From Micractinium sp. NFX-FRZ (lineage: Eukaryota; Chlorophyta; Trebouxiophyceae; Chlorellales; Chlorellaceae), in the NCBI GenBank assembly GCA_029339195.1, contig JAPTJF010000021.1, positions 218,988 through 282,987 of the forward strand: a stretch of DNA of 64,000 bases. The letters are read 5' to 3'. Shown here one piece after another: positions 9,721-60,821 of the stretch. Position numbers and translations under genes: made by a program. How positions within the stretch are numbered: position 1 is the first letter of the stretch; each line of letters starts with the position of its first letter. The notes below the pieces were generated by a model. The model was not told the DNA's origin. It did no database searches and saw only the letters and a program-made list of their open reading frames with translations.

Positions 9721-12700
9721 TCACAGGATCAGGCGCTCAATGGCCTCTGCCACGCCACCCGAGTCATTGTCCGCCACCACCAGCTGGGCAGCCGCCTTCA
9801 CCGCCGGCACCGCATTCCCCATCGCTACGCCCACACCAGCGCCCGCGACCAGTCCCAGGTCGTTGCCGCCGTCACCAATTGCCACCAGATCGGAGACAGG
9901 AATCTGAAGATCGTCCAGCAAGTGCTCCACAGCCCGCCACTTGTCCCACCCTGCAGTGCGGACAGCAGAGGGCCGGCCGAGGGTGCTGGTTTTGCCTAGG
10001 TTTTGACTGCAGCGTGTGTGGGCAAGCAGATGCAGGCAGGTGCGCAGGTGTCCAGGCAAGCAGGCAGGCGAGCAGGCAGGTAGGCAACATGCAGCAGGGG
10101 GCACCCTTTGTGGGTGCTCAGCATCCAACAATGCACTCAACGCTGCTGGCGGCATCCCACTCACCGCTGGGCACCACCTCTGCAGATACGAGACGGGGAG
10201 GCAGGGGAGAAGAGCAAGAGGTGAGTGCCAGTTTGGGGATCTGGGTGTTCCAGCGGGACGGGGAGCACGTGGACGTCAGGGGGCTCAGCAGGGATGCAGC
10301 ACCCACGTTGCTCTCGCGCCGACTGCAGCCTGGTCGCACCCACGAGCAGGTCACGCACCTGCAAACATCCCCGCCGGCACCCCACACCTGGGGGCACACG
10401 GCAGCAGCAGCCCTAACAGCTCACCCAGCATGTCTGGCACCGCCTGCATCGTCTCCGCCTCGCTCCCCTGCAGCGCCACGCTCCAGTGCGGCTTCAGGTG
10501 CCCCTCCACCGCCTCTGGGCTGGTCATGAACAGCAGCTTGCGCAGCGGGGGGCCCGCCAGCACAGCTGCCAGGGTGGACACCTCGGCCAGGGGCTCGTAA
10601 TACCTGCGCAGCCGGGGTGGGGGCAACCGTGGTTGAGGGGGCGAGGTGGGGCAGGACGGGGGATGGGATGGGGCAGCAGGTGAGGTGGGGTGACCAGCAG
10701 GGGAGGTGGCAGGGGAGCGGGCCAGTAGGGCGGCGATGCCCACAGCAAGCGCATCGCACCACCCACATACTGCAATCACCGCACCCATCCATCCCCTACC
10801 CCTGTCCGACCCACTTCTCACACCCTGACCAACCCTGCCATGCCCTTTTGCCCCCCAACTCCTCCCCCCGCCTGGGGTACACCTCCTCCGGCTGGACGAG
10901 GGCGACCCAATCCCTGCCAGAACACCCATCCAGTGAAGTTTGCTTTACTCTTTTTTGTAACCTTGCTTCACCTGTGGTGCAGCTCTTCCAGCTCCGGGTG
11001 CATCTTGTGTGTGACGCACTCCTCACCCAGGAAGCCACACAGCGGGACGTCGTGCTGCGCCGAGAACTCAAACGCAGCGCGCACCACGTCAGACGGCAGC
11101 TGCCCGCCCGCGATCAGCCGCCCGCCGCGGCCATAGGCGGTCAGGCCTGGGGCGGGAGAAGGGAGAGAAGGGAGGAGGAGCGGAGGGCGTGAGGCAAGGG
11201 CGCGCTTGTTGGGTGCTGCCAGATCAGAGGTTGGAGGAGCACAGGATACACCCCCTGCTCAGGAGCGCCCGCAGCAACCAGCAACCTACCCCTGACGTTC
11301 TGCCGTGGCCCCTGCTTGTGCTGCCTGCTGGTCCCTGGGCCCGCCTCATCCCAACACGCCCCCTTCTCAAACAGCAAGCCCCCTTCCTCCCGGTATTCTT
11401 GCAAAGTCCCACCTAGCAAGAAGATGGCCCGAGACGGCCAGAGCGGCCAACAACAAGCTGCTCCCCTGCCAGCCCCCACCGCCCTGGCCTGGCCCCAGCT
11501 GCCTGCTCGCCTGTGCGCACCCACCTTGCAGGAAAATGCCCGGTCCTGTCGTGCTGACCACAAGCCCCTCCCCCGCCAGCCCCACCGCTTCCATCGCCCG
11601 GATGGCTGCCGGGCGGGCCTTGCCGGTTGCTAGGATCACAGTGACCCCTCGTGCCAGGGCCGCCTTGATCGCCGCCACTGAGGAGGGCAGCACCCGGCTG
11701 CGGCTGTCCAGCAGCGTGCCGTCCTGCACAGGGGGGTGGGTGGGGAGGGAGCAGAGTGGAAGGGTGAAGGTGTGCGGGGGGGAAAGAGGCAGGTGGGGAT
11801 GAGCAGGGACTGAGGCTTCAGGAAAGAGGGAGGGGAGGCAGGCAGGCAGGGAGGGAGATGGGCAGGCACGGAGGCAGACAGGCGGGCGGGCGGGCGAGCA
11901 TGGAGGCAAGTGGCCAGAACTAGGCTGCATGCCTGGCCCAGCGTACACTAAGCAAGCAGCTGGCAAGCAATGCAGCAATGCGTGAGGAGCGCGTGCCCGC
12001 TCACCATGTCGAGTGCCAGCAGCTGCGCCTCTGCCCGGGTGCGCCAGCGCTTGATGAAGCCACCCTCGGCGTCACTATAACTGGTGCCGGCCAGTGCAGG
12101 GCCAGGGGCAGACGTGGAGGCACCTCCCTCTGGTGTGTGCACTGCTGAGCCTGCACAGGCAGCAGCAGAGGCAGGCAGGGCAGGGTGGGAAGTCGGGGCA
12201 CCTCCCTCTGGCGTGTCCAGCACAGCTGGGTGCGGTATGTGATTTGCTGCCCGCCTCCCTGCTGCATGATGCAGACTTCAGACACACGACAGTGCGCTGG
12301 TTACAATGTTCCGAGGGTCACGGCATGGGAGTACACACAGCTTCAGGGGTGCAAAGCAAAATGCCAAAATTCATGTACTCGCTGTAGCCGCCTCCCAACA
12401 CAAAAAGCGGAGGTGCGGCGCCGCCCTCTCACTGGCCCCATCTGCCGGCTCACGCACCTCTGCCACCGCCGGTGCCGCCGCTACTGCCGCTGCTGCCATC
12501 GCCGTCGCCGTCGCCGTGCACGTCGTCGCCGCTGCCTGCCAGGGCAATCAGGCCCTGCCCCTTCCAGCCCATCGCCTTGAGCAGGTGCTGCTCTGCGGCC
12601 GCCATCTCTGCCGCCTCCTCCTCATCTGGAGAACGCACAACAGGAAGAAGTGGCGCAGCAGCAAAGACGGCATCAGCAGAATGCATGGCAGCAGCCCAAA

Positions 12701-14494
12701 AGTTGTCGCCTCGCCTTGCCCCCGCACTCCCTCTTTCAGTGTGCGCCACGAATGCCGGCCAGCCTCGTGCATTGCCTGGAGCAACTCCCCTCACCCACCC
12801 TGCAGCCCCGCTCACCCTCCTCGTGATCAAAGCCCAGCAGGTGCAGCACGCCGTGCACCAGCAGTACACGAGACTCGTCCAGCAGGCCGTACTGCCGCTC
12901 AGCCGCCTGGCGGGCGGCGGTGTCCAGGGAGATGACCACGTCGCCCAGCACATTCACGGGCAGCTGCACGAGTGGATTGGAGTGACTCAGTTGGTTTGGG
13001 GAGCGTCAGGCATCAGTGAGGCATGGTGGAGGTTTCAGGCGCTGTGCAGAGAGGACTGCACATGCACTGTCACCCAGCACATGCACAGGCAGGTGGGAGG
13101 GGTAGAGGGAGGGCTGAAGAGCAGTCAAGAGAGGCAGATGGGCGGGCCACAGTGCCCGGTATTACATTACATCCAATTGCACGCCTTGCGCTTGGTGTCT
13201 TCACAGCACTGTCCCCTCCTCGAGCTCACGCCCACCCGCACCCTCAGCCACGCACCTCGGGTGCCGTGCTGTTGCCGTCCTCGTCCACCTCCCCCTCATC
13301 GCCGTCCTCCAGCTCAAAAGACAGCACATCCGTGGGGGCATCCACCCCCCGCCACTCCCGGTTCAGCTCTTGGATGTGCGCATCGTCACACAGCACCAGG
13401 GACAGCTCCAGAGGGGCTGCAGGGAGGCAGGGAAGCAGGCAGGGAGCAGGTGGGTGGGCAAAACTTGCAATTCCCGAGTGCAGGGTCACACAGCACCAGA
13501 GAGACTCCAGAAGCTGATTTTGAGAGTGACGGAGAGGCAGGGCGGCAGGTGTGGTGGCGCAACGAGGTGGCTCTGGGCAGCTGCCTGTGGTGAGCATGCG
13601 GGGCAGCAGTGAGGGGAGGGGCACATGTGTGCAGCATCCACCGAGTGCCTGCCCGCAACGCCTTGCCACCACCGCGCCTCCTCGCTCCGACCACCCAGCG
13701 AGCGCCTGCTCCTCCCCCTCCTCCTCCACTGTGTCCTCCCCCATGCCCCCTACCCCGCACGCCAGATCACATCTGTAGCTCGACCAAACTCGGGCGAGAT
13801 TGTAACACCACACCCACCCGGTGGCTCCTCCCGCTCATCCTCCTCCTCCCCCAGGATGTACAGCGCCGCCGCCTTGACCAGCCCGAGGCTGTCGTTGTAC
13901 AGCGTCTCTGCCAGGCCCTCCAGCTCCTTTTCGCTGCGGGCAAGAAGAAACGGAAGAAGCGAGGTGGGGGGAGGCAGGCAGGCACGATTGGCACTCATCT
14001 TTGTACTGGATCCACCAGCTTTGAAATGTGATTATAAAGCAGGCTGTGCAGGTTTCCCTGGCTCCTTCTCGCTGGGAGCAGGCAAGAACGGAGGGATGGG
14101 GGGTGGGGCTACGAATCGCCGAGCAACAGTGTGGCCCGCAGCACATCTCGACCTCCCTCCCGCCGCCGCACCTGAGGCTGCTTGGCTCGCCCTCCACCAT
14201 CACCCCCACGTCAGCCTGGATGTCATCCTCAGTGAATGCACGTGCCCGCCAGCGTGAGCTGTGCAGCTGCTGCCTCTGCTGCCGCGCCAGCGCCGTGCCG
14301 CCGCCCAGCCAGGCAGCAGCAGGGTGCCACCGGCGCAGCGCCGCGGCTAGCGGCGCTGCCGATGCGATCCCACGGCACTCTCCGGCATCCCCGACGGGCG
14401 CACAAGCAGCCAAGGGCCGTCGGGAGACTGCCCGAGTCTGGCGCCCCGCAGCCAGGCGGCACAGCCGTCCCGACACCCGCAGGCAAGCTGTCAT
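9721..14494 (-). CDS. YBEY: YbeY endoribonuclease fused to Cof-type HAD phosphatase, organelle-targeted
   Basis: Eleven minus-strand exons: 14172-14494, 13818-13933, 13256-13416, 12816-12963, 12458-12625, 12005-12225, 11525-11723, 10972-11146, 10425-10603, 10165-10179, 9721-9950. All join in phase to 644 residues. The N-terminal 80 or so residues are Arg/Ala/Ser-rich like a chloroplast transit peptide. YbeY follows, with the zinc motif [11 protein letters not shown] (exon 4) needed for rRNA 3' processing and quality control. After an acidic, Gly/Ser-rich linker comes a Cof-type HAD phosphatase: motif I LDMDGTLLDS, motif II ILATGK, and GDGGND. The same fusion occurs in land plants (Arabidopsis At2g25870). 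Exon 10 is only 15 nt but restores the EVVPSG-WDK stretch expected in HAD proteins. Exon 6 holds a 78-bp in-frame duplication. Confidence 0.9.
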
Positions 14495-14915: not shown

Positions 14916-17900
14916 ATGGAGGGCGAGCAGCAGGCACAGGGGGCAACGCCACCTCCGGCGCCCAGCGATGCCACCGAGGCAGCGGCGCCTGCCGACGCTG
15001 GCGCCGCGCCTGCCGAGGGTAGCCCAAGCGTTGGCGCCGAGGGCGAGGAGCTGCCAGAGCTGCCGCTGTTTAGCTGCAAGGTGCGCTGGTCAGGCAGGGG
15101 AGACTAAGTTAACATGGGTTGCTGTCAAGGCGGAGCAACTGCCTGTCTGATCGCACAGTCAGCTGGCCCATGGGCGCTCCCTGCGTGGCGTCCTAACCCC
15201 GCCCGGCCCCCTTTTCGCCTTCCTTTTCTCATGGCTACCGCCGCCTCTGTGATTGTCACCCTGAATTCTCGGCCTTTCCAAACCACGTGTTGCTGTGGGT
15301 GCCCTGCCACCCGCACCACAGCCGGGCACCTTGCCAAGCTGTCTGCCCACGCGCCTGCCACCCTTCTTCCTCCCCTGCTTTCTCTTGCCTCTTGCCTGCC
15401 TGCAGGAGGCGTATGTGTATCGTGTGCCGCCTGCCACCACGGCGGGGCACCGGGCGGAGATGTGGGATGTGAACAAGTGGCTGGCCACTGTGTCTCTGAG
15501 GGTCATGCAGGCGGATGATGACGCGTTCATTCGCATGACGGATGAATCAACCGGTGGGCACGAGTCGATTCGAGTGGTTTGCTGGGCACGTGGTCGTGGG
15601 GGTGTCCTCGAGGATAAGCAGATGGTGGTGTGATGTCATTGCGGCCGCTGAATCGCAAGGCAGGTGCACGTGCCGATTGCCTCCGCCTGCGCCCTGTGCG
15701 TTTGCAACTCCTTATGACGGGAAACGTTGGAGCAGCAGCCAGATCACGTCTAGATGCAGGCCACTTGTGTCCACCAACCCCGACCCCTTGACGCCCAGCA
15801 CTGATTGGGAACAACACTGGCTCGCGCTCCCTCCCCGCAGGCGAGCTGTTTGCCGAGTGCCCCGTGCCCACCGACAAGCCGCTGGTGACGGCGGTGGAGC
15901 CGGTGGTGGACAGCAGCAGATACTTTGTGGTGGGTCGGTGTTTCTGTCCTTTGAAAGGGCCACTGTGGGGCTTCACTTTGTTGCAGACTGGGGGCGGTTG
16001 GGAGCCGGTGGTGGGCAGCAGCAGCAACTGCTTTGTGGTGTGTCGCCGTTCTTTCTGGGCATGAGTTCTGTTGCAGGAATGGGGGCGGTGTAGTCTTTGG
16101 TCGACAGGAGCAGCTACTTTGGGGTGGGTTGACTGCCCTGCCAGGGAAGGCTGCTGGTAGGGCTTGAGCTTTTCACAGGAATTGTGGCGGTGCAGCCGGT
16201 GGGGGTGGACAGCAGCAGCTGCTTCGTGGTGGATGGGCTGTTACTCCAGGTTTGCAGCACGGGCTGCGGTTGAGGCCTCAGGGGGCAATGGCAGCAGAGC
16301 CAGTGGTGGAGAGCAGCCGCCACTTTGTGGTGGGATGAGCTGCTCTTCGTCTTGCCTTCTGCCCGCCCCGGCATCGTCTTCCCTACAGGATAGAATGGGC
16401 GTAGGGCTGGGGCATACCTGGCTGACGCCGCCCTGCGGCCCCCTGCCCCTCCTCATGTTGTTGCAGCTGCGCATAGTTGACCGTGACTCGCAGCGTCACG
16501 CATTCATAGGTGCGTGCAGCAGCAGCAGCACAGCAGCAGAACCCAGCCACTGCGTGTCGGATAGTGCAGTACAATACCATCCAGCACAGCAGGGGCTGCT
16601 GACAGTGCCGCATTTTCTCTCCCAACAGCAGTTTGACCACCTCACACTGGTGCGCTGGCCCTGCTGATCTTCTCTGCACCGGATGTTACTCTGCCCGCGC
16701 AGGCATCGGCTTCCGTGAGCGCAGCGAGGCATCCGACTTCAGCGCAGCACTGCACGAGTTCCTGCAGGCAGGCTGGGGTAGGGTGGGGTGGTGTTGAAGG
16801 GCGCTGACGTGGCGCCACGGGCGCGCCGAGGTGTGACATGCGACGTGCAACGTCTGCACGCAAACTGGCAAGTTTGGTGGGTAAAGGGTTGCAAAAACAG
16901 GATGTCACACACACACGTCACACACGTCACACACGTCATACACGTCACACATACACACACGCGTACCGCAATAACCCCCTGTGCAGTACATCAAGCGGAA
17001 GCGCACTGCCGATGCGATGCGCAGCGCGTACGAGGAGCGGCTGCAGTCGGCTGGGGGTGCAGACGGCGGCGAGCAGGGGGCGGAGGACGCACAGCCCCAA
17101 GCAGGTGCGCCCATGCACGGCAGGGGTTGCAGGGCAGGGGTTGCAGGCGGTTTGCCATGCCGGCGCTTGAGGCTGACCAAAGTGCAGCTGTGCACCAGGA
17201 CAGGGGTTGCACGCAGCTTGCCTGTGCCGCGTGCCCCCCCCTGTTTGCTGCCATGTTGCTGTGTCCCTCCACCCTGCCGTGGGCCCACCTGCCACCCCCC
17301 GCCCCGCCAGCAGTGAACCGCGCGTGTATCTGTGTGAATTGCGCCCCGCCTGTCCCCTGCAGGCGACAGCACTAAAGATATGGGGCGGGGTGAGCGACTT
17401 GCTGACACCCACACACTGCCTTGGACAGTGCCTCCGTGCTCAAAAAACGCACCGTTCCCCCCGCTCCTTCCTGGCACTGCCTGCAGACTATGCCATTAAG
17501 GAGGGCGAGACCCTGCACCTCAAGATCTCCGCCCCCCGGCGGGCAGGCACCGGCGGCTTTGTGAGCAGCAAACGAGGGCTGCTGGGCAAGCAGTTCAGCC
17601 TGATTATGGACGGGCGGGGCGGGGCGGTGGCCGCCCTGTCACCGCCCCCCAGCCGCACCAGCAGCGACGCCGGCAGCCGCGCCAGCAGCGACGGCGGCAG
17701 CGCCCGCCCCCCGCTGGACGACATGTGCGTCTCCCCGGCAAGCGTGGGCAGCGGCGGCAGCAGCCCCTTCCAGCGAGGGGACAGCGGGTCCGCCGAGGGG
17801 CCCGCCAGCTTGGGCGCTGCGCTGCCGCGGCTGTCGGGCGCGGGCGATGCGGAGCTGCAGACGCGGCTGCGTGGGCTGCGGCTCAACCAAGAGGGACCGC

Positions 17901-18750: not shown

Positions 18751-21515
18751 TCACGATCCTCCTCCTCCTGCTCCTCCTGATGCTGTGCCCTGCTGCACTC
18801 GTGCCGGGCTCCCCAGCCCCTCAGCTCCCAGCAGCTCGTTCAGCTGATGCAGCCAGAGGTGGTAGGCAGTGGGGTGGCACCTGCTAGTAATGGCGGGCAG
18901 GAAAGGAGGGCGATTCGAGCACAAGGGATGAGCCAAAGATGGGGTGGTAGGAGGAAGGGTGAAGAACTGCCAGTGCTGGTCACCCTCTTACAGAGGGGCC
19001 TGAAGGACTGCCAGCGGTGCAGGCCCATGCGTCGCCCCTGCTTTCCACTCTGGGGGCCCAAGCACGCAAAGAAAACAGTCTCCCAGCACCATTATCTCAC
19101 CAGTGTGTGCACTCATCGGGCACGTGTGAGTCCCACAGCCGCACGCTGGCGTTCCAGGTGCGCAGGTGGGCATCCGCCAGGCGTGGGACCAGTGGAGCGG
19201 CGGCCACGTTCCACGTCCCGCCAGCACGCGCCACAGGGTCGCCCCGTCGCCAGGCGTGCAGCGGCTCGCACTGCTTGGCCGAGAAGTTGCCCGCCCAGTT
19301 TCCGGTGCCCGGGAAGTGCTGGGGCGGGGTGTCCATCCACACCATGCGGGGCAGGCTGGCTCTGTTGGCGGCCCGGTAATCTGCCAGCCGGCGGAGGTCT
19401 TGCACATAGGCAGAGTCCTTGCCGGGCACGTGGCAGCTGCCGCCCTTGCAGCTTACATCCTCATAATAGTGCAGCCTGGGGGGATGGCAGGGGATGGCAG
19501 GGAGAGCACGAGGAATGAGCTGAGGGTCCAGGCCAGCTGGGACCGGTTCTGGTCCTGCGCACACAGGCAGCTGTGCCATGCATGTGGCCAGCCCCGCCAC
19601 TGGCACCCGGCAGTGGCAGCGGCAAGGCAGCAGGGGGCCAGCAGGGGGCACCAGGCTCCCGTCGCCGCCCCCCTGCTGCAGCTTCCCCTCATCATCACCC
19701 CACTCCAGCTGGCCCTTCTAGTGCTGAGCTGAGGTTTTGAGAACCTCACTCACTCAGTCACCCGCAGGCCCTGCTGGCTGAGTGAGCTGCTTGAAGCCCC
19801 TCACTCACTCACCCGCTGTTGAGCACCAGCAAGTCGTGCTTGAACCCCGGGGAGTGCTCCGCCAGAGTGGGAAGCACAGAGTCTGCCATGGCGCCTGCGC
19901 TGTCCACCCGCACGGCGCACACCCGCGTGCCGTGTGCCAGCTCAAGGCACAGCGGGGGCACCTTGTACCACTTGTAGCACAGCTTGGCTTTGGCGGTGGT
20001 GAGGGGCTTCATCAGCTTGCGACGCGCCAGCGGCTCGCTGCAATGCGACGGCGGCGTGGCAAGGAGCATGCTGGCATCTTGGGGCGCGGAACACGCTGGG
20101 GTGTTGGCTGGGCGGCAGTGCGAACGGCCAGCAGAGGCCAGCCAGCTCAGCAGGCAGCATGCGGGGATGGCGCGTCGGCTTGCCAACGAGCATGGTAGGC
20201 ATGTCTGGCCCTTCCGCAGCAGGGCACAGAGCACGCAATGCGCCAGCTCAGCGCGGCCAGCCGCCCGGCATGCTCACCTACGCTGCAATGAAGGCGCAAA
20301 CTCTCTCAAGAAGCATTCCACCGCGTAGTAAAAGTTCCAGGTCTGGGAGTCCCCCAGCAGCCACAGCGTGCGCCCCCGGATGCGCTGGAACAGCTCGCAC
20401 GGGGTGAAGCCCTGCGGGCACACAGCAGACAGGCAGGCGGGCAGGCACCAGGCAGGCAGGCTCAGCGCGCTGTGGGCAGCCAGCCAGCGTGGGTAGGCTG
20501 CAGGCCCCACCGCCGCACGGACGGGGCACCCAAGCCAGCACGCTGCAGGCGCAAGCACGTCGCTTGCCACAGCACACACTCACAAGCGCAAGGCACCGCT
20601 CCTTGGCCCCATGCTGCCTTCTTGACTGCCCCCGGCCCTCAGGCTGCCCCCTGGCCTCCCATGCACAATGTGTCCGCCTGCCGCCAGGCGTGCTGCCGCT
20701 TGTTTGCCCCCAATCCAACCCTGGCTGCCCTCCAGGCCCACGACTGCCTCCCACCGCCTCACATGCAAGAGATGCCCGTCTGCCATGTACCGTGCTGCCG
20801 CTTCCTGCGCCTTGCGCTGCTCCGGGTACAGCTGGCTGCACATGCGCCCCTGGAAGCGGCACACGCCGCAGCAGAGATAGGGCAGCTCCTTGGCCCCGCA
20901 GTTGCTGGTGCGAGGGCAGTGGGAGCAGGCCTGCTTCTTGGTGGGCAGCGCCTCAGCTGAGAGGTTGAAGAGGAAGGGGAGCTGGCCAGAGGTGGGGGGC
21001 GGCGGGGATGTGCTCACTAGACCTGCAATCAAGCATCGGCAGGAGAGGTTTTCCGTTGGAGAAAGGATGCAAATCGTTGGAGAAAAGGATGAAAAGTAGC
21101 GTGGCAGGTGTCCTTTCAGTGAGCAGACTTTGCCGGTCAGTGCCAGCAAACGGCAGCGGCAGGCCCCACGGCGTGCGCACCCACCGTCGGCGGCAATTGA
21201 GCACTGAGAGTGGGGCGTCTGGAAGGTGCTGCCAGGCGCCTTCTGCCACTTTGCCGCACTGTGTGTCACCCTGATCATGCCAGGGGCTGCTGTGATGCGA
21301 ACTTCAGCCGCCCCCACGGCCGTGTCGCGAGGCCAGACTGGCACCGCCGTCAGTCGCACCGCCAGTGCCGCCGCCACCAGCAGCAGGGTGACCAGAGCTG
21401 CCCCTAGTTCAAAGCGCCGCCAGCTCCAGTGGTGCGCTGAGTGCGGTGAGCGCGGTGACTCGCCATGCCGCAGCAGCGGAGAGCTGGGGGTCGAGTGATG
21501 CGCGGCGCGCGACAT
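18751..21515 (-). CDS. TBL/PC-esterase-like type II membrane protein, copy A
   Basis: Six minus-strand exons: 21185-21515, 20763-21022, 20278-20411, 19813-20037, 19101-19475, 18751-18880; 484 residues. Short cytosolic N-terminus, one membrane anchor (FELGAALVTLLLVAAALAV, residues about 34-55), a Cys-rich lumenal segment (CSHCPRTSNC..CCGVC), then the SGNH/PC-esterase block LWLLGDSQTWNFYYAVECF (GDS nucleophile motif), HDLLVLNSG, and ECTHWCHPTAYHLW near the end, matching the second catalytic block of trichome-birefringence-like O-acetyltransferases. Known relatives acetylate cell-wall or other glycans in the Golgi; the substrate here is unknown. The usual Asp of DxxH reads as Glu. The in-frame ATG at 21515 was chosen over 21563. 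Copy B lies directly downstream on the same strand. Confidence 0.78.
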
Positions 21516-25008: not shown

Positions 25009-25096
25009 TGGCTGACAACAAGTGCGTCAGCCACTTGTTTGCACTGCCTCCAGGTGTGGCAGTGCAAACAAGTGTGTGTGGCAACCTGCACCACAC
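25009..25096. repeat. Cluster of overlapping perfect inverted repeats
   Basis: Arms 25032-25048 and 25058-25074 (17 nt each, CACTTGTTTGCACTGCC and its complement, 9-nt loop) form a perfect hairpin. Overlapping it, TGGCTGAC (25009-25016) pairs with GTCAGCCA (25026-25033), and AACAAGTG (25017-25024) with CACTTGTT (25032-25039). Just downstream GTGTGTGG pairs with CCACACAC. It lies outside any gene. Confidence 0.8.
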
Positions 25097-32700: not shown

Positions 32701-34376
32701 CATGTGCTGACGCAGGCAGGTGTGTTCATGCAAACCTGTGCATGGGCAGAAGGTGCAACTGCCAGTGAATCCCCCCCACACACCTCAAGCCGTCCTCCGT
32801 TCAGTCAGGCTTGCTCACACCGATATACTGCTCAGGACGCTGTGGCCCCCCACACACACCGCCCTCCTCCATCCACCTTTGCTCCCCCCGGAGCGTTTCA
32901 AGACTGCTGCAGCAGACTGCCAGGCTGCACAGTTGCTGTGCACGACGTGTCATCAGCAGCCCACCTGAGGTCGTCCACTTTGGAGTCCGGCTTGCTCTCT
33001 ACGATGCACTGCTCCGGCACGCTGGGGCGCAGGTAGCCCAGCAGGCCGTAGGAGCGCAGCAGCAGCAGGCGCACGCCGTGCTGCCGGCAGATTGTGTCTA
33101 TCGTCACCGCGTCTGCCTCACACAGCTGCATTGCATGAATGGGCACATGTGATGGACACTTGGGTGAGTGGACACATGTGAGGGATACAACCGGCAAGGA
33201 AGGATTGGAAAGGAAATTTCCAGACCATGTCAACCGCAGCAGCTTCTGTTCACACAGCTGCAGGGCTTGGCTGGGTTGAGCATCCAGCATCCGAGGGGTT
33301 GGCTGGGCTGGCTTCAGCCAGGTTTCAGCAGCGTTTGCCAGCATCCCACGTGTTGCTGCCTTCCTGCCCTTTACACCTGATCCAACAGGACATGAGGCGG
33401 TACATCCGCTCCCACGCTAGCCCAAACCCACCTCACAACGGTCTCACACCACAACACCTCATCCCGCCGCCACAATGGGGTGCTCACCTGCGTGGCTATG
33501 ACCAGCGTGAAACGACGGAAGAAGTCTGGGTTGGAGTTCATCAGGCTGCGGGGGCTCTCCTCCACGTAGCTCCCACCCACGCTCTCGTTGAGCTCCTTCA
33601 GGCACTCTGCATCAGGAGGAGCATGCATGCGGCAACAATGGGGGTATTGACGAGTTCCAAGGAGAGGGTACGAGGGCAGGCAGGGGCATGCCTTCCATAC
33701 ACGCTATTTATGAGCAAGGGAGCAGGAAGGCTGAACAGGTGCAGGCAGGTGGCGGCCCAGGGAGGGGGCAGCTGAGGAGAGGAGGGGGCAGGCAGGTGCG
33801 AAGCCAAGAAAAGCAGCAATATGGAACTGAGCGTGAGGGCATGCCGCCTCTGGAAAGGTGCGCGATTCAAAGCAAGCTGCGCAGGCGAGTGGGGTGGCCG
33901 GGTGGCGGCTGTGCAAGGGGAGCACAAGGAACGCAGCGCTGGCAACCTCGGACTGGGCGGGCCAACCAAGAACACAAATGATAGCGACCCTTGCCCAGCT
34001 GACAGCCTTCACGGTCGCCACAGCCACCCGGCCGCCCAAAAGCCAATGCCAACATCAATTCGCCACCATGCCCCACTCCTTGCTCGCAGGCCCGCCCGCC
34101 CACCCACCCACCCGTGGCGCACTGCGCTCGGCTGGTGGCCAGCCCATCAGCGGTGAGCAGGAAGTTGTTGCCCAGGTCTGCGGGGGTCACCTTGGCTCCA
34201 TCCACGACAGTGAAGGAGTGGATGCCTCCCAGCACCAGGTTTTTGAGGGCCTCTGTGCCGGTGGGCCCCGCGTTCAGCAGGCAGACGCGCGCCGACTCCA
34301 GCGCCTCCTGGCCGTGGGCGCCCCAGATGCGGATGCCGCGATCATAGCGCTGCGCCTTGTTCACGGGGGCGGACAT
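29779..34376 (-). CDS. AXR1: NEDD8-activating enzyme E1 regulatory subunit (AXR1/NAE1/ULA1)
   Basis: Ten minus-strand exons: 34112-34376, 33488-33606, 32965-33125, 32557-32648, 31929-32065, 31513-31629, 31157-31313, 30703-30817, 30302-30478, 29779-30055; 538 residues, close to the about 540 of plant AXR1. Conserved blocks: [77 protein letters not shown]...[15 protein letters not shown], and [18 protein letters not shown]. It pairs with the catalytic ECR1/UBA3 subunit to activate RUB/NEDD8 for cullin modification; like other AXR1 proteins it shows no catalytic-Cys domain. The ATG at 34376 matches the family N-terminus. Head-to-head with the FAM114-like gene. Confidence 0.93.
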
Positions 34377-49754: not shown

Positions 49755-52694
49755 ATGCTCAGTCAACTTCGACATGCAGCTGGAGAGCTGCTCGCAAGCT
49801 ATGCGCGACAGGCAGCTCAGCCGCCGCTGCCTGTGGCGGCAGCTACAGCGGCAGCGGCTGGGGCGCGGCTGCTTCCTGCGTTGCAGCAGGCGCGGGGGGC
49901 ACACAGCAGCGGCGGTGACGACAGTCAGATGGTAGACAGTGGGGTGAGTGTGCATTTCTTGTTTGCCGCAATACATGCTTTGCTTGCCACCAACACGAGT
50001 TGGACGGTTCCATACCGTGCCCGCCACTGCCGGCGACGTTTTGGTGCCATGCTGTCCTGCGCTGCACTCCCCAACTCACCCGCCCTTTGTCTGCCCACCT
50101 ACCCTCCCACAGTTCCAGCCTCAGCCGTTCAGCATGGCACTGCGTCAGCTGGAAGCGGCAGTTACGCAGACGGTGCTGCCCCAGGATGCGCTGGCAGAGA
50201 ACCGCAAGGCGATGGAGGGGGTCAAAGAGTTTGCTCGTGCGCTGGATGTGCCGTATGGCTACCCGCCAGCCATGGCCAAGCGCGTCACGTTTGTGTTCCG
50301 GTGAGGGCGGCGGGGCCTGCAGCTGCCCAACCTCATGCAACCTCTAAGCAACCCCCGCTCAGGGTCCCATTTGCTCTGTGCTCTATTTGCCTAGACCACC
50401 CCACCACACTGTGTTGCTCCCACCCGCCCACCATCTGACCGCTGTGCTGCTGCCCCGCCTCCCTGTGCAGAGACCCTGACAACGGCGGGCGGCTGCACCG
50501 GGTGCGCACCACTCTGAAGACCAGCGGCGGCGACAGCTCAGCACAGGTGCAGCTGCGCCTGGGGCAGCTGCTGGAGCGCATGGGGCTCAACCACTTGTTC
50601 TACTTTGACGGCGGCCAGTTCAAGCCAAAGCCGATGCCAAAGTCGCAGCCCATACGCGTGTCTCAGCCTCAGTCCAAGGCCAAGGCCAAGCCGCGTGCAG
50701 CAGCAGCAGGAGCAGCAGCAGCAGGTGGGTAGTGGGGGCATGCATTGGCGTTGGTTGTGTGTGGGAGCTGATTGCTGGCAGGGCGCAGCTCCAGGCGGCC
50801 GGCGGCCTCCGCAACTGAGCAGCAGTTGAGCACGGGCCTCATGCCTGCAACTCACATGAGAGGCCCAGCGGAAGGCAGGGCGTGTTGCCGTGCTGAGCTC
50901 CCCTGCCAAGTGCTCTACGGCCAACGCCATTGCGCCCTCCTTGCCTTGCCCCGCCCTGCCTGCTCCCTGGCTTCCGCAGAGCCCTCGCTGCCGGACGTGC
51001 AGGCGGTGCGGGCCAAGGCGGCGGCAGCGGGCTTCCCCAGCCAGACAATCAGCGAGGAGGAGTTCAAGAAGATGCAGGAGCAGTCGGTGAGCTGGCGGCG
51101 CTGAGCTGGCAGGGGTGTGCTGGCGCTGGCGGGGGGGGCGAAGTTGGGGGATGAGTTGACAATGCTGAGCTAGCGGTGCTGAGCTGGCACGGAGGCTGCT
51201 GGGCCTGGGTGACAAAGGATCCTGTGGGCTGGAGCAGTGGGGGTCAGCTGGTCGGGCTGGGCATGGAGCGGGAGCGCAGCTGCAGAAGATGCAGCCTCTT
51301 GTGTGTGCCACCCCGACTGTGCTTGGGGGCCTTGTACTGGCAGCTTGTGGTGCAGGCCAGCCGAGCAGAGGCGGCCAGGAGGGAAAGACGCAGCAAGGCA
51401 GCCGTGGATGTGAAGAGCACGCACACAGAATCCACCCAGGCTGCTGTATGTGCACCCCGCGTGTGAACCTGTGCAGGAGGCCACCCGAGCCGAGAAGGCA
51501 CGGAAAGAGGCGGCAGCCAAGGCAGCAGCAGAGAAGCTGCGGAAGATTGACCCGCTGCTGGCGGCTGTGGCGGCGGTGCCCTGGCTGGCGCAGGTGGGGA
51601 TGGGGCAGCACGGGGCAACCAGTCACTTTGTGTTCTGCACACAGTGTACAGGCGGAGTGCAGGGGGTGCAGCGTTGGGAGGCAAACCGGCCCTGCCAGCC
51701 AACAGGTGCTTGCTGGGGCTGACCGGGCTGGGGGCCGGATCGCCAGGGAAGGCGCAGCTGGCGCCCCGTACTGCGTCCGCCTCCCACGTGTCACTGCATT
51801 TCTCCTACTGCTCCCCACCTATTCGGGCGTGCCGTCCTCCCCCTCCCCCACCCGGGACTGACCCGTCACAATGCCCTTGCCCCCTTGCCCCCTTGCCCCC
51901 TTGCCATTCCCAACCCACTGCCTGCTACTCCCACAGGCTAAGGACAGCGGGCACCCGGCTGATGCACACTCGGCCTTCTCACCCCATTCGCCGCTTGCTC
52001 CCCTCTCCACCCCATGTCGCCTCACTGATCCCACCCTCTTGATAGCTGACTGGCGCCTTTGGCTTCATGTCCTGTTGGCACCCTCACGCCTTTGGGCGTG
52101 ATGATCTGCTCACGGCATGACACTGCTTCCCCTCCCACCCTCCCTGCCCCCGCCAGATGAAGGACAAGGAGGCGGCAGCCAAGGTGGGGACCATCAAGAC
52201 GCGGGTGATGGACGAAATCGAGTCGTGGGGTGAGTGGGGCGGGGGCGGCCTCGGTGCAGGGGCGTGAGTGAAGCGGGGGCGTTGTCAGTGCGGGGGCGTA
52301 AGCGGGGCGGGGCCATTCTCCGGTCACGACGCGTGGATGGGTGGGAACCAGAAACTTCCATGCATGCTTGCCTAGCTGCGCTGTGCCTGCCAGCGCACAC
52401 CTGGCCTGCATGCTTTGGTGTCTTGAGCCCGTGCCGAATTGGGCGAGCCTCCCCAAGCCTGCTGACAGGCCTGGCCCCCAACCCCGCCCTCCCCCCGCCT
52501 CCCCGCCCCGCCCAGGCTGGGACGTGCGCGGCCCCGTGCGGCGCATCTGGGACGGCGAGCGCTCGCTGGCGGCGCTGCAGCAGGGCAAGGATACCGGCAG
52601 CCAGGAGGCCATCAAGACCATACTGTTCCACGCCGTCCAAAACGACAACAAGTATGGGCAGCGAACGCTGGCGGCAGAGATGGGGCAGGAGTGA
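49755..52694 (+). CDS. Hypothetical protein, probably organelle-targeted
   Basis: Seven exons: 49755-49943, 50113-50300, 50471-50724, 50980-51086, 51477-51593, 52157-52229, 52516-52694; 368 residues, phases consistent. The N-terminus is Ala/Arg/Gln-rich without acidic residues (MLSQLRHAAGELLASYARQ), like a mitochondrial presequence. Then come a helical domain (MALRQLEAAVTQTVLPQDAL), a beta-like stretch (AKRVTFVFRDPDNGGRL), a Lys/Pro/Gln-rich linker, a long charged Ala/Lys/Glu helix (ATRAEKARKEAAAKAAAEKL), and a C-terminal piece WDVRGPVRRIWDGERSL with NDNKYGQRTL. No family recognised. A further small exon inside intron 5 (near 51937) is possible. Head-to-head with the methyltransferase. Confidence 0.6.
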
Positions 52695-53050: not shown

Positions 53051-56000
53051 TCACTCCGCCTTGGGCCCCACAGGGAGGCGAAGGGAGAGGCTGAGGGCGA
53101 CGTACGCTGTGGCCAGCTGCAGCACAATGGCAGCCAGCGCTGCGGTCACCATAGCACGCTCCCCCGCTGTCTCCTTGACGCAGTGTGCGGGCAAGTCGGC
53201 CAGGAAATCGTTGCCCTGCTCCTGCTGCTTGGCCAGCGTCTGTGGCGGGGGGCAGGGCGGGGCGGGGAAAGGGGGCTGTTGGAGTTGGGCGGTGTGGTTG
53301 GGTGACGCTGGGAGGCGAGGGGGCACCCTACATTGCAGCAGCTGCAGGCAGAGTGGCGCCCGTCCTCCACCGGCACAAGTTGAGTAGACACAAATATTGC
53401 CTTTCCTGGGAGTAAACCCCACCTCCATTGAACAGAGCTGACCTCCCAGTGCCTCCTCACCTCCTGGAACTTCTGGCTCCATTTTTCCCTCTGCTGTCGG
53501 CGGTGCTCGTTGATGGCGTGCAGCTGGCGGTGTGCGGAGCCCACCAGCAGCTGGCTGTAGTTGTCCGACTTGCTGCGCTCAAGGGCCGCCTGCAGGTGGG
53601 CGACGGAGGGAGGGCGGGCGGAGCGGGGCTGGGCAGTCAGGCGACCATGCCGGCAGGCTCTGGGATGGCATTCCCTAACACAAGAATTGGCCACCTTTAT
53701 CGCCCAGTAAGCTGGAGCTGCAACGTAGCCCCATGCACGAAATCAAGCAGCACTGTCAAGGTCACCCGCCCCACTCTTCCACCCCACCCCAGCCCCCACC
53801 TTGAAGTTTGCAAGCTCCGATTTGGCCTGGGCAATGCCCGGCTGCGCATCGCCCATGGTGGACTCCAGGGCAGCCAGGATCTCCTGGTACTCTGCGGGAG
53901 GGACAACCGCCAGCGGGGCAGTGCAAGAAGGGTGAAGCGTAGGGGAGCAGGCCTTCCAGTTGATGCCGCCAGAGAAGAAGAAGACCGGCTGACCGGATCC
54001 CCATGCCACCTGGCAGGGCATGCCTCCCCTCCAACCACCTGCTTCACTACCTCCCCTCCACCCCGCCTCTGCTCACCCTCAAAAGTGATCTCCTGCCCAT
54101 CCTCCTCATGGTGCTTGGTGATGCGGTCAATCACAGAGTCGGCCGTCTCCATGCGCTTGCGCAGGGCCGCCTTCTCGTCCTCGCTCAGGCGCTGCTGGGG
54201 GGCCAAGGGGTGGGTGAGGCAAGGACGAGGGGTGAGGTGGTTGTGTGGCAGCAGTGAAAGCAGACAACTCCCACCAGCGCTGACAGCACTCTTCAGCGGC
54301 CGCCTCGACCGGCGCACATGCCCCGCCCAAGCCCCGCCTGCCTCGAACCCCACCCCACACCTCCACACCCTCACAGAATCTACTTGAAAACCGCTATATT
54401 TGTTATAGACCAGCTATAACTGCTGTTATCTGCTGCAGCGGAGCGGCAGTACTGCAGCGGAGTACGGCGGCAGCGGCTGAAGGGCCTTCTGTACCGACCG
54501 CCCCTACCGTCAGTAGCGAGCGGCAGCAGATAACAGCACCCACCTGGATGTTCTCTACTGTCACGTTGGGGTTCTTCAGCACGCTGTTCAGTAGCTCCTC
54601 CGCATGAGATTTGACCATGGCCAGCTTAGACCTGCAGCGTGGGGGGCGGGGGCGGGGGCGGGGTGGGGGTGGGTGAGGGCAGAGGGAGAATGCCATGCAG
54701 AGTCAGGGCAAGCAGTCGCAGGAAGGGGAGGGGCGTGGGACGTTCCTGTGTGCTGGGAGGTGGGCGGGCACCCCAGCAAGGCGCCAGCCAGCTGCCTGCA
54801 GGCAGTCACTCTTGTGCCCCACCCTTGTGGCCCCGCCCACCCTTGTGGCCCCTTCCCCCTACCACCCCCTGAATGTACATCAGCAGTACCTGATGTACTG
54901 CAGGTCGTTCATCTTCAAGTTCTGCTGCTCCTGCCGAAGCTCCACCTGCTTGGCGGCTCCCTGCGGGGGAGGAACAGGTGGGCACGGCAGGGAGCAGTGG
55001 GGACCCTGTGAGCTCCCGCCTGCAACAGCGTGTACGCAAGTGCCGCCCAGCCTTCTGAGCTGAACCATGCAGAACAGACGTCCACTCCGCTCACCCCTGT
55101 GCACCCCGCCCCGTCCCCGCTTTATGTTGAGTGGCCAGGCGCTCCATCCAACCCTGTGCACCCCGCCCACCTGCCCGCCCCCACAAACCCTGCACCCGCC
55201 CCACCCGCCCCACCCACCGTCTGCACCATGGTCAGCGAGTCCTCCATCTCGTTGAGCCGCAGGAACACGGCCTGCAGCGCCTCTTGCTGCGCCACCCCTG
55301 CCACCGCCTTCTGCGTCGCCCTGCCCGTGTGGTACAGCTCAGCCAGGGCGCAGTCGACCTGCATTGCCAAACCAATAGAGCAGTTGAGTGATTTCTTCAG
55401 GTGTGAGAAAGAAAGGGGGCGCATGTGGCTGTGCTTTGGCAGGCTGGGCTGCGGCGGCGCCTGCCTCGGGTTGAGTTGGGCGCGGACCCCCACACACCAC
55501 GCACACTGAGCCGCCCAAGCGTCCGCCGCCAACCCTACCTGCGTGTCCCGCACAACCTCGGACACCAGGTTGAAGGCCAGCAGCATGCCCACGAGGCACG
55601 CAATCAGCTGCGCGCTGCTCAGGTTGCTGCTCTTGCGCCGCCCGCCCATGTAGCCGATGCCGCCGCTGGCGATCAGCAGGCCGCCCAGCACCTGCAAGAT
55701 GCACAGGGGAGGTGCAGTGGTGCAGAGGGTGAAGCGGATTGCTGCAGGGGATTGGAGATGGACCTATGAGCAGGTGAGCGTCTGCTCACCACCAGCAGGG
55801 CGCCCAGCACCTGCCAGCGTGGATTGGAGTGCAGAAGGTGGGTTGGGATCAAGGCGGGGCACAGGACGGAAAGTGGAGGTGAGTGCACGGGGATGACGAG
55901 CAGTTGAAGGCTGACCATGCACAGCCAGTTGCACTGAGGCAAGCAGTAGGCGCTCCGCGTGCCCCGCCTGAAGTTCACGAGCTGCCCTGCGACTTGCGCA

Positions 56001-56722: not shown

Positions 56723-59700
56723 ATGGAACTGGACAGAGAGGACAACTGGAACTTGCTGTACCATGAGTCGCAGACCGCCGCTCTCTGTGGGGTGAGCGGC
56801 CCTGCCGAGCTCTGATCAATTGAAGACACGTAGTTTGATGTGCCTCGAGACGCAGCCAGTGTGCGAGCGGTCTCCGTCACCTCCTGTTTGCTCGCGTTGT
56901 TGATCACCTGTCGCCCTGCCGCCGCTTTGTGTGCAGGTGCACGCCGTAAACACTCTTTTGCAAGCCCCACACTTTAGGCGAGTCGACCGGCGCCGGCTGT
57001 CAATTGCTGCCGCCGCCGCCGCCACCACCGCTGCCGTCGGCTGCTTGCCGCCGCTGCGAGCACACACGTGTCAGCCCCGCCTGATGAACTGCCTTCCGCA
57101 GCTGCTGCTGCCACCGCCCCCTTCTCCACTTCCCGCTCTTGCTACTCCCCTTGCAAGCACCCACTCTGTCGCCTGTCGTGTCACCCGCTCACCCGTCGCC
57201 TTGCAGCGAGGTGGAGATGGCGCAGATTGCGGCGGAGCTGGATGCGGCAGAGCGTGCGCTGATGGCGGCGGGGGGCGTCGACAACGAACACTACCTCCAG
57301 TGCGTGCCCGTGCTGCGCTTACCGGCACTGCTGCTTCACCTGCTGCAGGGCGCCGCCTGCCGCCTCGTTGTGCCATCGCTCTGTGCGCGCTCCTGCGCTC
57401 CGGTGCTGAGCAACCAAGCATTTTAGGGCACTACTGTCTCTTAGGCTGCCAGTGCTGCCGATCCGCAACCATCGCTGCTGTGCAAGCGGACGCCATATGG
57501 TGCTCCTGCTCTGCGAGCTCACTGCGCTGTGCCCACCCCTCCCGCAGGTATATGGCAGAGGGCAGCGGGAACGTGGCTGAGAATGGGATGTTCTCCATAC
57601 AGGCAAGCTGTGCAGGAGGGCCTGCTGCGGGCCACTGCTGCTCTTCCGGAGTGCGGGCCCACGCCAGCACTCTACTCATGCGCTGCTGCTGCTGACCTGC
57701 CGTGCCCGCCCCTGCCCTGCTGCTGTTGCCCCGGCATGCTGCTGGACTGCCCCGCTCCCTGCGCCGCCCTCGGCGCCTTCAATCTGCGCCTTCCACATAG
57801 ACTCATTGCCTTATCATGCAAAACACATCCCCACTGTCATCCCCAATCCACCCATCCTGATGCCATCAGGTGCTGGCCAAGGCGCTCGAGGTGTTTGGCC
57901 TCCAGGCGGTGCCGTTCACCAGCCCAGATGCGGCGTCAGCACGCGCCGACCCCACCTCCCAGGAGGCATTCATCTGCAACCTGCAGGTGTGGCAGTGTTG
58001 GCAGCAGGGGCGGTGGCAAGGCCATGTAGTGCGCCGGATGGCGGCAGCAGTGGCAGCGGTGAAACTGGCAGTTGTGCATAGCAGCGGTGTGGCGCGCCGA
58101 TGCTAGCAGTGGCAGCTGCAGGGGTGGCAGGGGCAATGGTGGTGGGATGTGGGGTCTATCTGTTGTGGGGCGACGAGCGGCTGCTCTCCAGTGCACTGAC
58201 CGCAGGCCGCTTGACTTTGCCCGCTGTAGTGTTGTGGGCTGTTGTGCTGCTCGTCTCTGATGTTATAACATCGTGTTCCCCGCCATCTGGCCGCCATCCT
58301 TCTGCTGCCCCCACCACGTGGCCCCCACCACGTGGCCACCATTTCCCAATCACGTAACACCCCACCCCTTCACCCTCCGCCCCGCCCGCCTCGCAGGAGC
58401 ACTGGTTCACCATCCGCCAGCTGCACGGCCAGGTGAGAGCGCTCTGTTTTGTATATGTTTGTTGTGGCAGGCGCCATCACGTGTTGGCACGCGTGTCTGC
58501 AGCCGGGTGTGTGTCAGCGCTATGCTACGGTGCGACCCTCGACCCTGACGCGTCTCTCTATGCATGCCCCCCTGCCTCCCTTACCTCCACCCGCCAGTGG
58601 TGGAACCTCAACTCCATTTACTCGGCACCCGAGCCCCTCTCCGCCTTCTACCTGTCAGCCTACCTGGACTCTCTGAGGGAGCAGGGATACACGGTGGGCT
58701 GGGGCGCAGGGTGGGGAGCGTCGCGGCATGGTAGGCGGCATGCACAGGCGGGCGCAGTTGCGTCATGCCTGGGCTTGTTTATTGCATATGCTGGGACCGC
58801 CGCTCAGCTGCTGCGCCTCTAGCCCCTTCACCCCCTCTTGTTTGCTCCACCTCCTTACACCTTTGGGATACCCCGGATAGATCAACCCTTCAACCCCACT
58901 GCCGCTGCCTCAGATCTTTGTAGTCACGGGGCCGCTGCCCCCCAGCCAGCCGCCCGCCAGCGATGCGGAGCGCGTGGTGCCGGGCCTGGCGGGGCGCTGG
59001 TTCACGCCGGAGGAGGCGCGGGCGGCCACCAAAGTGAGTGACGGCCAGCACGGCTGGTTTGGTGTTGTGGATGGGTGGGGCAGGAGGGGCAGGCTTGTAG
59101 GGATGGATTATTTTTTAACGCCACGGGCGGCTACCAAGGGCGGGCAGCAGTCTTTTCATCGTGTTCATCGGATGGTTGGAGCAGATGATGCGGGGCGTGG
59201 CGGGGCATATTGCCGGTAGCAGAGGCCGAGGTGCAGCATGTGCACGGCGCTGCCGCAGCGGCACCCCAGCCTTACATGCCGCAGCTCTTACAGCTGACCT
59301 CAAACCCCTGTCACCCTCTCTTCCCCTGGTTTTTCAGGAGCGCGAGCAGCTGAAGAACCAGGGCTATGTGCAGGCCGTGGCCCAGGGGGTGCTGGGCCAG
59401 GCGAGCGAGGGGGAGGGGAGGTGGGTGACGCTGCGGCGGCCGGGCGCCAAGCGGGCACTGGAGGAGCAGCAGCAGGGCGAGGAGATGCAGGTGGGTACAC
59501 GGCTTGTATTGTATTGTGTTGATCTGGGTGGGGCAGGTGGCCATGTGATTAGGGGGTTGTCAGGTTGCCAAGCGGGCGCTGGAAGTGGAGGTGCAGGTTT
59601 GTTTGGAAGGAGTGGCGTGGAGTGCACGGCCAGCCAGGTGCTGACCGGGCGCTGGAGGAGCAGCAGGGCGAGGAGATGCAGGTGAATCATATGAGCTCAC

Positions 59701-60821
59701 GTTTTGAGGGGCGGTGTGCGGCAGGTGTGAGATTTTACCGTTTCATGGGGAAGCGAGCGCTGGAGGGGAGCCAGTGCAAGGACGTAGGTGCAGGGCAGGG
59801 TATGGCCCTGGGTCGGGACATTGGTGAAGACAGCAGGCAGTCATGTTGCTGCTTGCAACTCGTGCCTTACCTGCCTGCCTGCCTGCCAGCCTTCCCTTTA
59901 TGCGTTTCTCTGCCTGAGCCAGGGGCGGCGGTCTCGGCCTAGTGCAAGCGCGGGCTGCCAGACTGGCAGACTGTCGACCGCCTGTCCTCACTCGTCTGCC
60001 TTGCTTCTTGAACCCCTTTGCCTGTGCAGGGCGACGACCCCGACCTGGCACGCGCACTGGCCGCCAGCATGGCAGATTCAGACCACCCCGGCCCCAGCGG
60101 CAGCCGCCCACAGAGCCGGAGCGTGTGGGGCGCTGCTGCTCCCATGGCAGGTGCAGCAGGCCTGGCGGATGACGAGGATGCTGACCTGGCAGCTGCCATC
60201 GCTGCCAGCCTGGCAGGCAATTCTGGCAGCAGCCAGCAGCAGCAGCAGCAGCAGCAGGCACAGCAGGCAGAGCAGCAGGGGGGCGCGGCGGCGGCGGCAG
60301 CAGCAGGCGACCAGCCGGACAGCCCGCCGGTCGGCGTCGCAGGTACGGCGCCTGCAGCAGTGGCACCGCAGCATGCGCAGCGTGACGACATTTTTGATGA
60401 CGAGGATCCTGAGCTGGCAGCCGCCATAGCCGCCTCCCTGGAACGGCCTTCTGGTGGGCAGCAAGAGCAGCAGCAGCAGCAGCAGCAGGCAAGCGCGGGC
60501 CAGGCTGAGCAGCAGGTGGCAGCGCAGCCGCCGGCCCTGGAGCTGCCAGAGCTTGCTGGAGAGCCAGAGGCGGGGGCTGCAGGTGCCATTGAGGTGGCGT
60601 TGCGCCTGCCAGGTGGCGGCCGCACCAGCCGGCGGTTCAATGCGGCGGAGGACACAGTGGGGCAGCTGGCAGCGTTTGCGGCACAGCAGGGCGCCGACAT
60701 GGCGGGGTGCCAGCTGGCGGCGCAGTTCCCACGCCGCGTGTTTGGGGACTGGGGCGCCAGCCTGGCAGCCGCTGGCGTGGGCAATAAGGAGCTGGTGACT
60801 GTGGAGCCCAGGCAGGCATGA
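56723..60821 (+). CDS. ATX3: Ataxin-3-type josephin deubiquitinase with UIMs and UBX domain
   Basis: Ten exons: 56723-56791, 56937-56977, 57207-57299, 57548-57602, 57870-57986, 58397-58432, 58598-58693, 58914-59033, 59338-59490, 60030-60821; 523 residues. Josephin domain: YHESQTAALCG/VHAVNTLLQ with catalytic Cys22, EGSGNVAENGMFSIQ, AFICNLQ, catalytic His in EHWFTIRQL, then WWNLNS and IFVVTGPLP. Next are three ubiquitin-interacting motifs (DDPDLARALAASM, DADLAAAIAASL, DPELAAAIAASL) separated by Gln runs, and a C-terminal UBX fold (EVALRLPGGG, FPRRVFGDW). It should trim ubiquitin chains and dock on p97/CDC48 through UBX. Two introns use GC donors (56978, 57603). Intron 9 contains repeated copies of the exon 9 end. 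Confidence 0.92.
59446..59790 (+). repeat. Array of exon-9-end copies inside ataxin-3 intron 9
   Basis: The end of exon 9 (AAGCGGGCACTGGAGGAGCA ... ATGCAG/GTGGGT, end 59490) recurs with ends near 59596, 59681 and 59785 (spacing 106, 85, 104). The second copy (59637-59681) is nearly intact, including the GAGATGCAG/GTGAAT donor. Confidence 0.8.

What the first reader, a model, noticed from the sequence alone, without database searches (positions are those of the whole stretch)
12119..59790. Window-wide pattern: introns grow by tandem duplication of exon borders
Besides NECAP and ataxin-3, decayed copies of an adjoining exon edge with its splice site are visible in YbeY-HAD introns 1 and 2, PC-esterase A intron 4 (donor), PC-esterase B intron 4 (acceptor), AXR1 intron 3 (donor), and the coiled-coil gene intron before exon 55539-55691 (acceptor). 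Both donor-side and acceptor-side copies occur, with offsets of about 60-180 bp and often near 100. That many independent cases in 64 kb suggests a general mutational process acting at exon-intron borders in this lineage, a possible route to intron lengthening, alternative splice sites and new small exons.
Basis: partly seen in the sequence, partly recalled or inferred. Interest (0 to 1): 0.75.

Follow-up and report, generated by a model that had tools for sequence, protein, structure and literature searches.

The report
Introns lengthened by short tandem duplications
In this green alga many introns seem to have grown by copying about 100 letters in place, and where the copied piece overlapped the edge of a coding segment a decaying copy of that edge can still be read inside the intron.

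Summary
On 314 kb of the host genome (a Chlorella/Micractinium relative), with a self-trained gene finder, exon-terminal 40 nt match their own flanking intron far above length-matched introns of other genes: 36 and 37 of 442 (donor, acceptor) at p<=0.005, 2.2 expected each; reverse-complement control 3 and 3 (on 264 kb). In all 68 of 624 introns carry a decayed edge copy with offset >=60, median nearest offset 104. By my gene models seven of eight named places hold; YbeY intron 1 is marginal.

Introns with 0/1/2 copies measure 237/360.5/468 nt. Copies are in direct orientation, frame-indifferent and look neutral. A border hotspot is not needed: an exon template keeps old duplications readable, and two of five simulated settings, tuned after seeing the data, give border:interior 2.3-4.5 against 2.1 (the other three about 1.0). 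Intergenic sequence showed no excess. Random placement does not explain that units carry <=50 nt exon and >=46 nt intron. Best reading: ~100-nt tandem duplications in genes, plus a splicing-viability filter.

The parts
15841..15929 (+). NECAP exon whose 3' end is the probable template of the ladder
   Evidence: gene model; Pfam DUF1681; four relatives' proteins have this segment once
15990..16338 (+). four decayed copies of the NECAP exon end plus donor (15990-16043, 16079-16132, 16184-16237, 16285-16338), spacing 89-105 nt; two of them overlap predicted in-frame exons 15987-16037 and 16258-16329
   Evidence: not in the NECAP proteins of Micractinium (2) and Chlorella (2) read
59439..59493 (+). 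ataxin-3 exon end (donor side), template
   Evidence: p=0.001; Josephin domain
59560..59684 (+). copies of the ataxin-3 exon end (59567-59597; 59633-59666 and 59654-59684); the last two lie in a predicted 72-nt in-frame exon not seen in the C. vulgaris protein
13923..14108 (-). YbeY-HAD intron 1: acceptor-type pair 13923-13970 / 14061-14108, offset 138 (marginal)
   Evidence: not at p<=0.01
13380..13511 (-). YbeY-HAD intron 2: acceptor-side copy, offset 100
   Evidence: (p=0.001)
12916..13095 (-). next intron of the same gene chain: acceptor-side copy, offset 129
   Evidence: (p=0.001)
12111..12228 (-). acceptor-side copy, offset 78 (exon 12005-12150)
   Evidence: p=0.001
11450..11583 (-). donor-type pair, offset 107 (exon 11525-11723)
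   Evidence: not at p<=0.01
20654..20803 (-). PC-esterase-like gene: donor-side copy, offset 102 (intron 20412-20762)
   Evidence: p=0.002
22971..23095 (-). PC-esterase-like gene: acceptor-side copy, offset 74 (intron 23003-23242)
   Evidence: (p=0.001)
32781..33017 (-). AXR1 (ThiF) donor-side pair 32781-32836 / 32962-33017, offset 181
   Evidence: score 115; gene identity
37535..37702 (+). DUF7798 gene: donor-side copy, offset 116
   Evidence: p=0.002
47473..47674 (-). two copies of a 61-nt stretch 141 nt apart, one overlapping a donor by 7 nt
51354..51526 (+). acceptor-side copy in intron 51087-51476
   Evidence: p=0.001
55665..55817 (-). coiled-coil gene: acceptor-side pair 55665-55698 / 55784-55817, offset 119

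Best explanation
Genes of this alga undergo frequent short tandem duplications of about 80-150 nt in direct orientation. When the unit straddles a splice site, the outermost splice sites stay in use, the protein is unchanged and the intron grows by one unit; the inner copy of the exon edge and splice site then decays neutrally. Repeated events make ladders with a period near 100 nt (NECAP). Such duplications also occur inside introns. Exon-edge ones stand out because one partner, the exon, is held by selection while intron-intron pairs decay on both sides. A viability filter shapes what survives: the unit brings at least about 46 nt of intron (on the acceptor side the branch point, pyrimidine tract and AG) and rarely more than 50 nt of exon. 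Shown: the excess, orientation, offset scale, longer introns, absence of selection signs, placement rule. Inferred: tandem origin of every case (the intron part is detectably homologous in 33-50%, by method), survivorship as the cause of the border excess, the branch-point reason for the rule, and repair of staggered breaks as the source.
For: Edge-versus-own-intron test 36+37 of 442 at p<=0.005, 2.2 expected each; reverse complement 3+3. Direct repeats scoring >=85: 144 at offsets 60-300, 2 at 2000-2240; inverted 6 and 1. Length 237/360.5/468 for 0/1/2 copies (n=556/60/7), length minus offset 253; length-weighted draws reach the observed median in 1 of 5000. Eight introns hold two or more border copies counted at least 30 nt apart (sequences). 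Intron part of the unit homologous at >=95th percentile, 5% expected: 42, 33 and 39% by local alignment, 50 and 45% by global. GT kept in 10 of 16 and AG in 19 of 23 (0.67 and 0.77 expected); mismatches by codon position 0.139/0.136/0.196. Simulated tandem duplications of age 0.15-0.4 with 5-10-nt indels resemble the data in match length, exon identity and intron homology and give border:interior 2.3-4.5; observed 78:37. Intron part under 46 nt in 2 of 78, 22% simulated; CTRAY motif peaks 50-31 nt before the acceptor.
Against: Settings that fit were chosen after others had failed; three of five settings gave border:interior near 1.0. Intergenic sequence shows no excess (4 of 515 tiles at SW>=80, null 0.0101; 5 intergenic pairs against 11.2 on re-placement), though only about 25 kb was labelled intergenic; so the process is shown for introns and borders only. 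Exon part over 50 nt in 7 of 78 against about 45% simulated is not explained by decay. With weighting by room (length minus 120) 124 of 5000 draws reach the observed length, and the one intron with three copies is 294 nt. The lower limit of the intron part holds for donors too (0 of 34 under 46), for which a branch point is no reason. Gene models are mine, without RNA support. My odds went from 0.68 to 0.65 when, on checking, I put the intergenic result back.
Confidence: 0.65

Rival explanations
1. Border hotspot: breaks or replication slips are more frequent at exon-intron borders, so edges are copied preferentially.
For: Border-spanning pairs 41 against 19.6 under random re-placement of the same shapes, intron-intron pairs 53 against 50.7. 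Exon 40-mers 40-80 nt from the border are copied in 3 of 339 and 1 of 344, edges in 19 of 445 and 23 of 444; deeper exon tiles 0 of 809 (SW>=80). 68 introns have a border copy, only 14 an interior pair (offset >=60) and no border copy. Three of five simulated settings give a ratio near 1.0 without a hotspot. No excess in intergenic sequence.
Against: With older ages and larger indels survivorship alone gives 2.3-4.5. Intron interiors have copies at each of eight positions tested.
Confidence: 0.17
2. Short copy-insertion: only 25-55 nt around the splice junction is copied about 100 nt away, not a whole unit in tandem.
For: Matches are short (median about 36 nt) whatever the exon identity, and in 58-67% of cases the rest of the unit shows no significant similarity by local alignment. 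Intron 552 has two junction copies with different exon parts and dissimilar upstream intron.
Against: Introns with a copy are longer by about the offset, not by about 40 nt. Intron parts are homologous well above the 5% expected. Decay with indels also gives short matches.
Confidence: 0.12
3. Copies are functional: alternative splice sites, decoys or small new exons.
For: By eye some copies look like complete small exons (introns 185 and 359). NECAP and ataxin-3 copies are called in-frame exons.
Against: GT and AG decay like their surroundings, little codon structure in mismatches, complementary sites not above random (donor side p=0.14, acceptor side below random); offset a multiple of three in 19 of 78; the five relatives' proteins read lack the copies.
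Confidence: 0.05
4. Chance or low-complexity similarity in a GC-rich genome.
For: Short-period repeats are common.
Against: Short-period repeats were masked; introns of other genes, reverse complement and far offsets are at or near chance.
Confidence: 0.01

Closest known systems
Intron gain by tandem genomic duplication (AGGT model): review PMC3443670 (passages); Drosophila PMC2891723 (passages); potato RdRp PMC4974935 (search listing only)
   Same: Local tandem duplication of DNA with splice-site sequence, spliced out so that the protein can be kept.
   Different: There an exonic segment is duplicated and a new intron is born. Here existing introns become longer and the copied border lies inside them.
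Small tandem duplications from repair of DNA breaks: PMC8355091 (passages); Vaughn and Bennetzen 2014 and Schiml et al. 2016 seen only as its references, content recalled
   Same: Short duplications in direct orientation; the paper speaks of short (<100 bp) insertions, here units are about 80-150 nt.
   Different: Break origin not tested here. The word 'intron' does not occur in that paper's main text.
Introners: PMC9860276 (search listing only)
   Same: Changes in intron content in eukaryotes, algae included (recalled).
   Different: Introners are one family copied into many genes; here copies match their own neighbouring exon.
Tandem exon duplication / mutually exclusive exons (recalled, no call)
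   Same: Exon sequence repeated nearby.
   Different: Only an exon edge is copied, in general without the far splice site and without a frame rule.

Membership tests
Intron gain by tandem genomic duplication | duplicated exonic segment carrying AGGT makes both ends of a new intron | not tested
   The 19 X pairs, some of which join two exons, were not analysed for intron birth.
Intron gain by tandem genomic duplication | head-to-tail duplication | tested here: inconclusive
   Intron part of the unit homologous in 33-50% by method; two or more border copies in eight introns; the rest too decayed.
Small tandem duplications of break repair | direct orientation and short size | tested here: met
   Direct 144 against 2, inverted 6 against 1; median nearest offset 104.
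Small tandem duplications of break repair | origin from a staggered double-strand break | not testable with these tools
   Needs mutation-accumulation lines or induced breaks.
Introners | many near-identical copies in unrelated genes | tested here: not met
   Exon edges match their own intron, hardly those of other genes (null at SW>=80: 0.0004-0.0006). One 294-nt repeat sought in the whole genome has one place; other units were not sought genome-wide.
Tandem exon duplication | copy has both splice sites and keeps the frame | tested here: not met
   No excess of complementary sites; offset mod 3 = 0/1/2: 19/31/28. Single exceptions possible.
Minisatellite | array of head-to-tail units | tested here: inconclusive
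   NECAP has five copies; most loci have two, and the NECAP ladder was not listed by Tandem Repeats Finder at score 40.

The most novel reading that the evidence does not exclude
In this algal lineage introns are built largely from border-straddling ~100-nt tandem duplications: if only 11-21% of old border events are still detectable (two settings), 68 detected introns of 624 would stand for about 0.5-1 event per intron. A fixed window (<=50 nt exon, >=46 nt intron) sets which duplications live, so that splice geometry, not transposons, governs how introns grow.
Probability: 0.3. Interest if true: 0.72.

Novelty: new variant of a known kind. Interest (0 to 1): 0.55.

Why it matters
Intron birth by tandem duplication is described, but how ordinary introns lengthen without transposons is less documented in what I saw. 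Exon edges act as conserved references that expose old duplications inside introns, so rate, size and survival rules can be read from a single genome. The placement rule is a testable statement about what splicing tolerates. If general in Chlorellales it would explain many short repeats in their introns and give a source of latent splice sites.

Tried and rejected
Chance and low complexity: rejected by masking and controls. Selection on copies and small exons: rejected in general. Gene finder hiding long copies as exons: only 11 pairs lie in two different predicted exons, and their match starts at most 58 nt from the exon end. Uniform full-unit tandem duplication with flat age and mild indels: does not fit; an older age window with larger indels does, chosen after seeing the data. 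Global alignment of intron parts was sensitive to indels, so local alignment was used as well. Searches in print: the listings showed no title or abstract start on exon-border duplications lengthening introns; each lists only its best 10-20 papers of an open-licence library, so this is weak.

Dropped before counts: 96 of 538 introns (outside 60-800 nt or an exon under 40 nt); 24 of 648 introns (outside 60-1000 nt); pairs with offset under 60 nt in most later counts (4 donor, 0 acceptor, 25 interior); 19 X pairs (those that fit none of the donor, acceptor or interior classes) were not analysed further; 2 of 78 pairs and 6 of 78 whose intron part was too short. Intron 400 lists one copy twice (offsets 178 and 179).
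Full report
Setting. The window is contig C21:218988-282987 of a 66-Mb, 838-contig genome with 65% GC in the window. I added 250 kb from contigs C1, C2 and C4, in all 314 kb; searches used the first 264 kb.

Gene models. No annotation was at hand, so I wrote and self-trained a two-strand gene finder. It converged on donor CAG|GTGRGY, acceptor CTGCAG|G, median intron 245.5 and exon 109 nt (538 introns). Pfam supports most of the nine protein pieces I gave it: YbeY and HAD, DUF1681 (NECAP), ThiF (AXR1), DUF7798, Josephin (ataxin-3), methyltransferase and SurE; PC-esterase just at its cut-off; the coiled-coil piece has only a sub-threshold hit. Neighbouring genes are sometimes fused into one chain. 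Border copies are not a product of weak models: by quartile of splice-site strength, weakest first, they are 9, 24, 13 and 22 of 156 introns each.

The excess. Local direct repeats at offsets of 60-140 nt are about 200 times above background (for example 1.25 against 0.005 per offset at score 85) and fade beyond 200 nt. By tile at SW>=80: exon edges 19 of 445 (donor) and 23 of 444 (acceptor); exon 40-mers 40-80 nt inside 3 of 339 and 1 of 344; deeper 0 of 809; exon start against the sequence after that exon 0 of 443; intron-interior 40-mers 1.2-2.8% at eight positions; 40-mers against the rest of the same exon 7 of 696 (null 0.006); intergenic 4 of 515 (null 0.0101, itself raised). So introns and borders show the excess, intergenic sequence does not, on a small sample. 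Of 624 introns 68 carry a border copy with offset >=60: 30 donor-side, 38 acceptor-side.

Anatomy. Nearest offsets: median 104, quartiles 93.5-128, 47 of 68 in 85-135. Eight introns hold two or three border copies at least 30 nt apart; in four of the ten listed the second offset is about twice the first. NECAP has five copies in 454 nt. Orientation is direct: 144 against 6 inverted, with 2 and 1 at far offsets. Offset mod 3 is 19/31/28 for 0/1/2, so the copies are not kept in frame. Read by eye, the NECAP proteins of four relatives and ataxin-3 of C. vulgaris have the segment once.

Growth. Median intron length is 237 without a border copy (n=556), 360.5 with one (n=60), 468 with two (n=7); the single intron with three is 294. 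Length minus offset is 253. If long introns were only more likely to catch a duplication, draws weighted by length reach the observed median in 1 of 5000, draws weighted by length minus 120 in 124 of 5000. The length effect is good but not overwhelming evidence.

Decay. Copied GT is kept in 10 of 16 and AG in 19 of 23 cases where the match reaches 6 nt into the intron, close to 0.67 and 0.77 expected from the surrounding identity; four of the 16 donor copies read GC, at least one of them from a GC donor. Mismatches by codon position of the exon are 0.139, 0.136 and 0.196: an almost uniform part, as from a neutral copy, plus a small third-position part, as from the exon itself. The far end of copies has no excess of complementary splice sites. 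So there is no general sign of new exons or maintained alternative sites.

Is the border special? Naive re-placement says border-spanning pairs are twofold in excess (41 against 19.6). First simulations of uniform tandem duplications with ages spread from zero gave border:interior of about 0.9-1.5, longer matches than seen, and intron parts homologous in 64-97% of cases against 33-45% observed in the same calls. Older ages (0.15-0.4 substitutions per site) with indels of 5-10 nt come close in match length, exon identity and the share ending short of the border, and give intron homology of 0.68 and 0.31 against 0.39. In one search these two settings give border:interior 2.3 and 4.5 against 78:37 = 2.1; three other settings give 0.99-1.04. 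In the two fitting settings 11-21% of border events and 3-10% of interior events remain detectable, and part of the interior hits is background (13 of 478 untouched introns), so those ratios are if anything too low. The settings were found after the data were seen. My reading: a hotspot is not needed, though it is not excluded.

The placement rule. No decay setting tried reproduces where the units lie. For offsets up to 130 the exon part exceeds 50 nt in 3 of 54 (36-43% simulated) and the intron part is under 46 nt in 2 of 54 (31-36% simulated), p between 5e-7 and 5e-10 over three settings. A CTRAY motif, the usual branch-point form (recalled), peaks 50-31 nt before the acceptor: 34 and 35 per 10-nt bin against 11-14 further upstream than 60 nt, 583 introns. 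An acceptor-side duplication that lacks it would leave the real acceptor without a branch point of its own, and one with a long exon part would make a strong competing site. That is a natural selective filter, but for donors the same lower limit (0 of 34 under 46 nt) has no such ready reason, and a mechanical cause is not excluded.

Known work. Tandem genomic duplication is an accepted route of intron gain (PMC3443670, passages; PMC2891723, passages). Small tandem duplications from break repair are described in human and mouse cells, and a plant and human origin from nearby nicks is cited there (PMC8355091, passages). What I did not see in the listings is the lengthening of existing introns by border-straddling duplications as a widespread pattern. 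The library holds only open-licence papers and the listings are short, so this is weak evidence of novelty.

Noticed in passing
window and L002-L021: The self-trained donor model has C at +2 in about 9% of donors, so GC-AG introns may be unusually frequent; not checked against RNA.
   Followed up: no
37726-37840: Three close copies of a 34-35-nt unit inside an intron of the DUF7798 gene, apparently a recent minisatellite.
   Followed up: no
60168-60485: Exonic duplication in ataxin-3 (offset 228, a multiple of three) that repeats a ubiquitin-interacting-motif-like segment next to a glutamine run.
   Followed up: no
32306-32546: C-rich array of diverged repeats in the AXR1 region.
   Followed up: no
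19097-25290: Two neighbouring similar PC-esterase-like proteins in one predicted chain, probably a tandem gene pair (by eye).
   Followed up: no
contig C1 block (L002-L011), intron 185, + strand: A donor-side copy that by eye looks like a complete small exon (about 47 nt) with its own acceptor and donor; a candidate to check with RNA.
   Followed up: partly
window and L002-L026: CTRAY motif enriched 50-31 nt before predicted acceptors, a likely branch point rather far from the acceptor (recalled comparison).
   Followed up: partly
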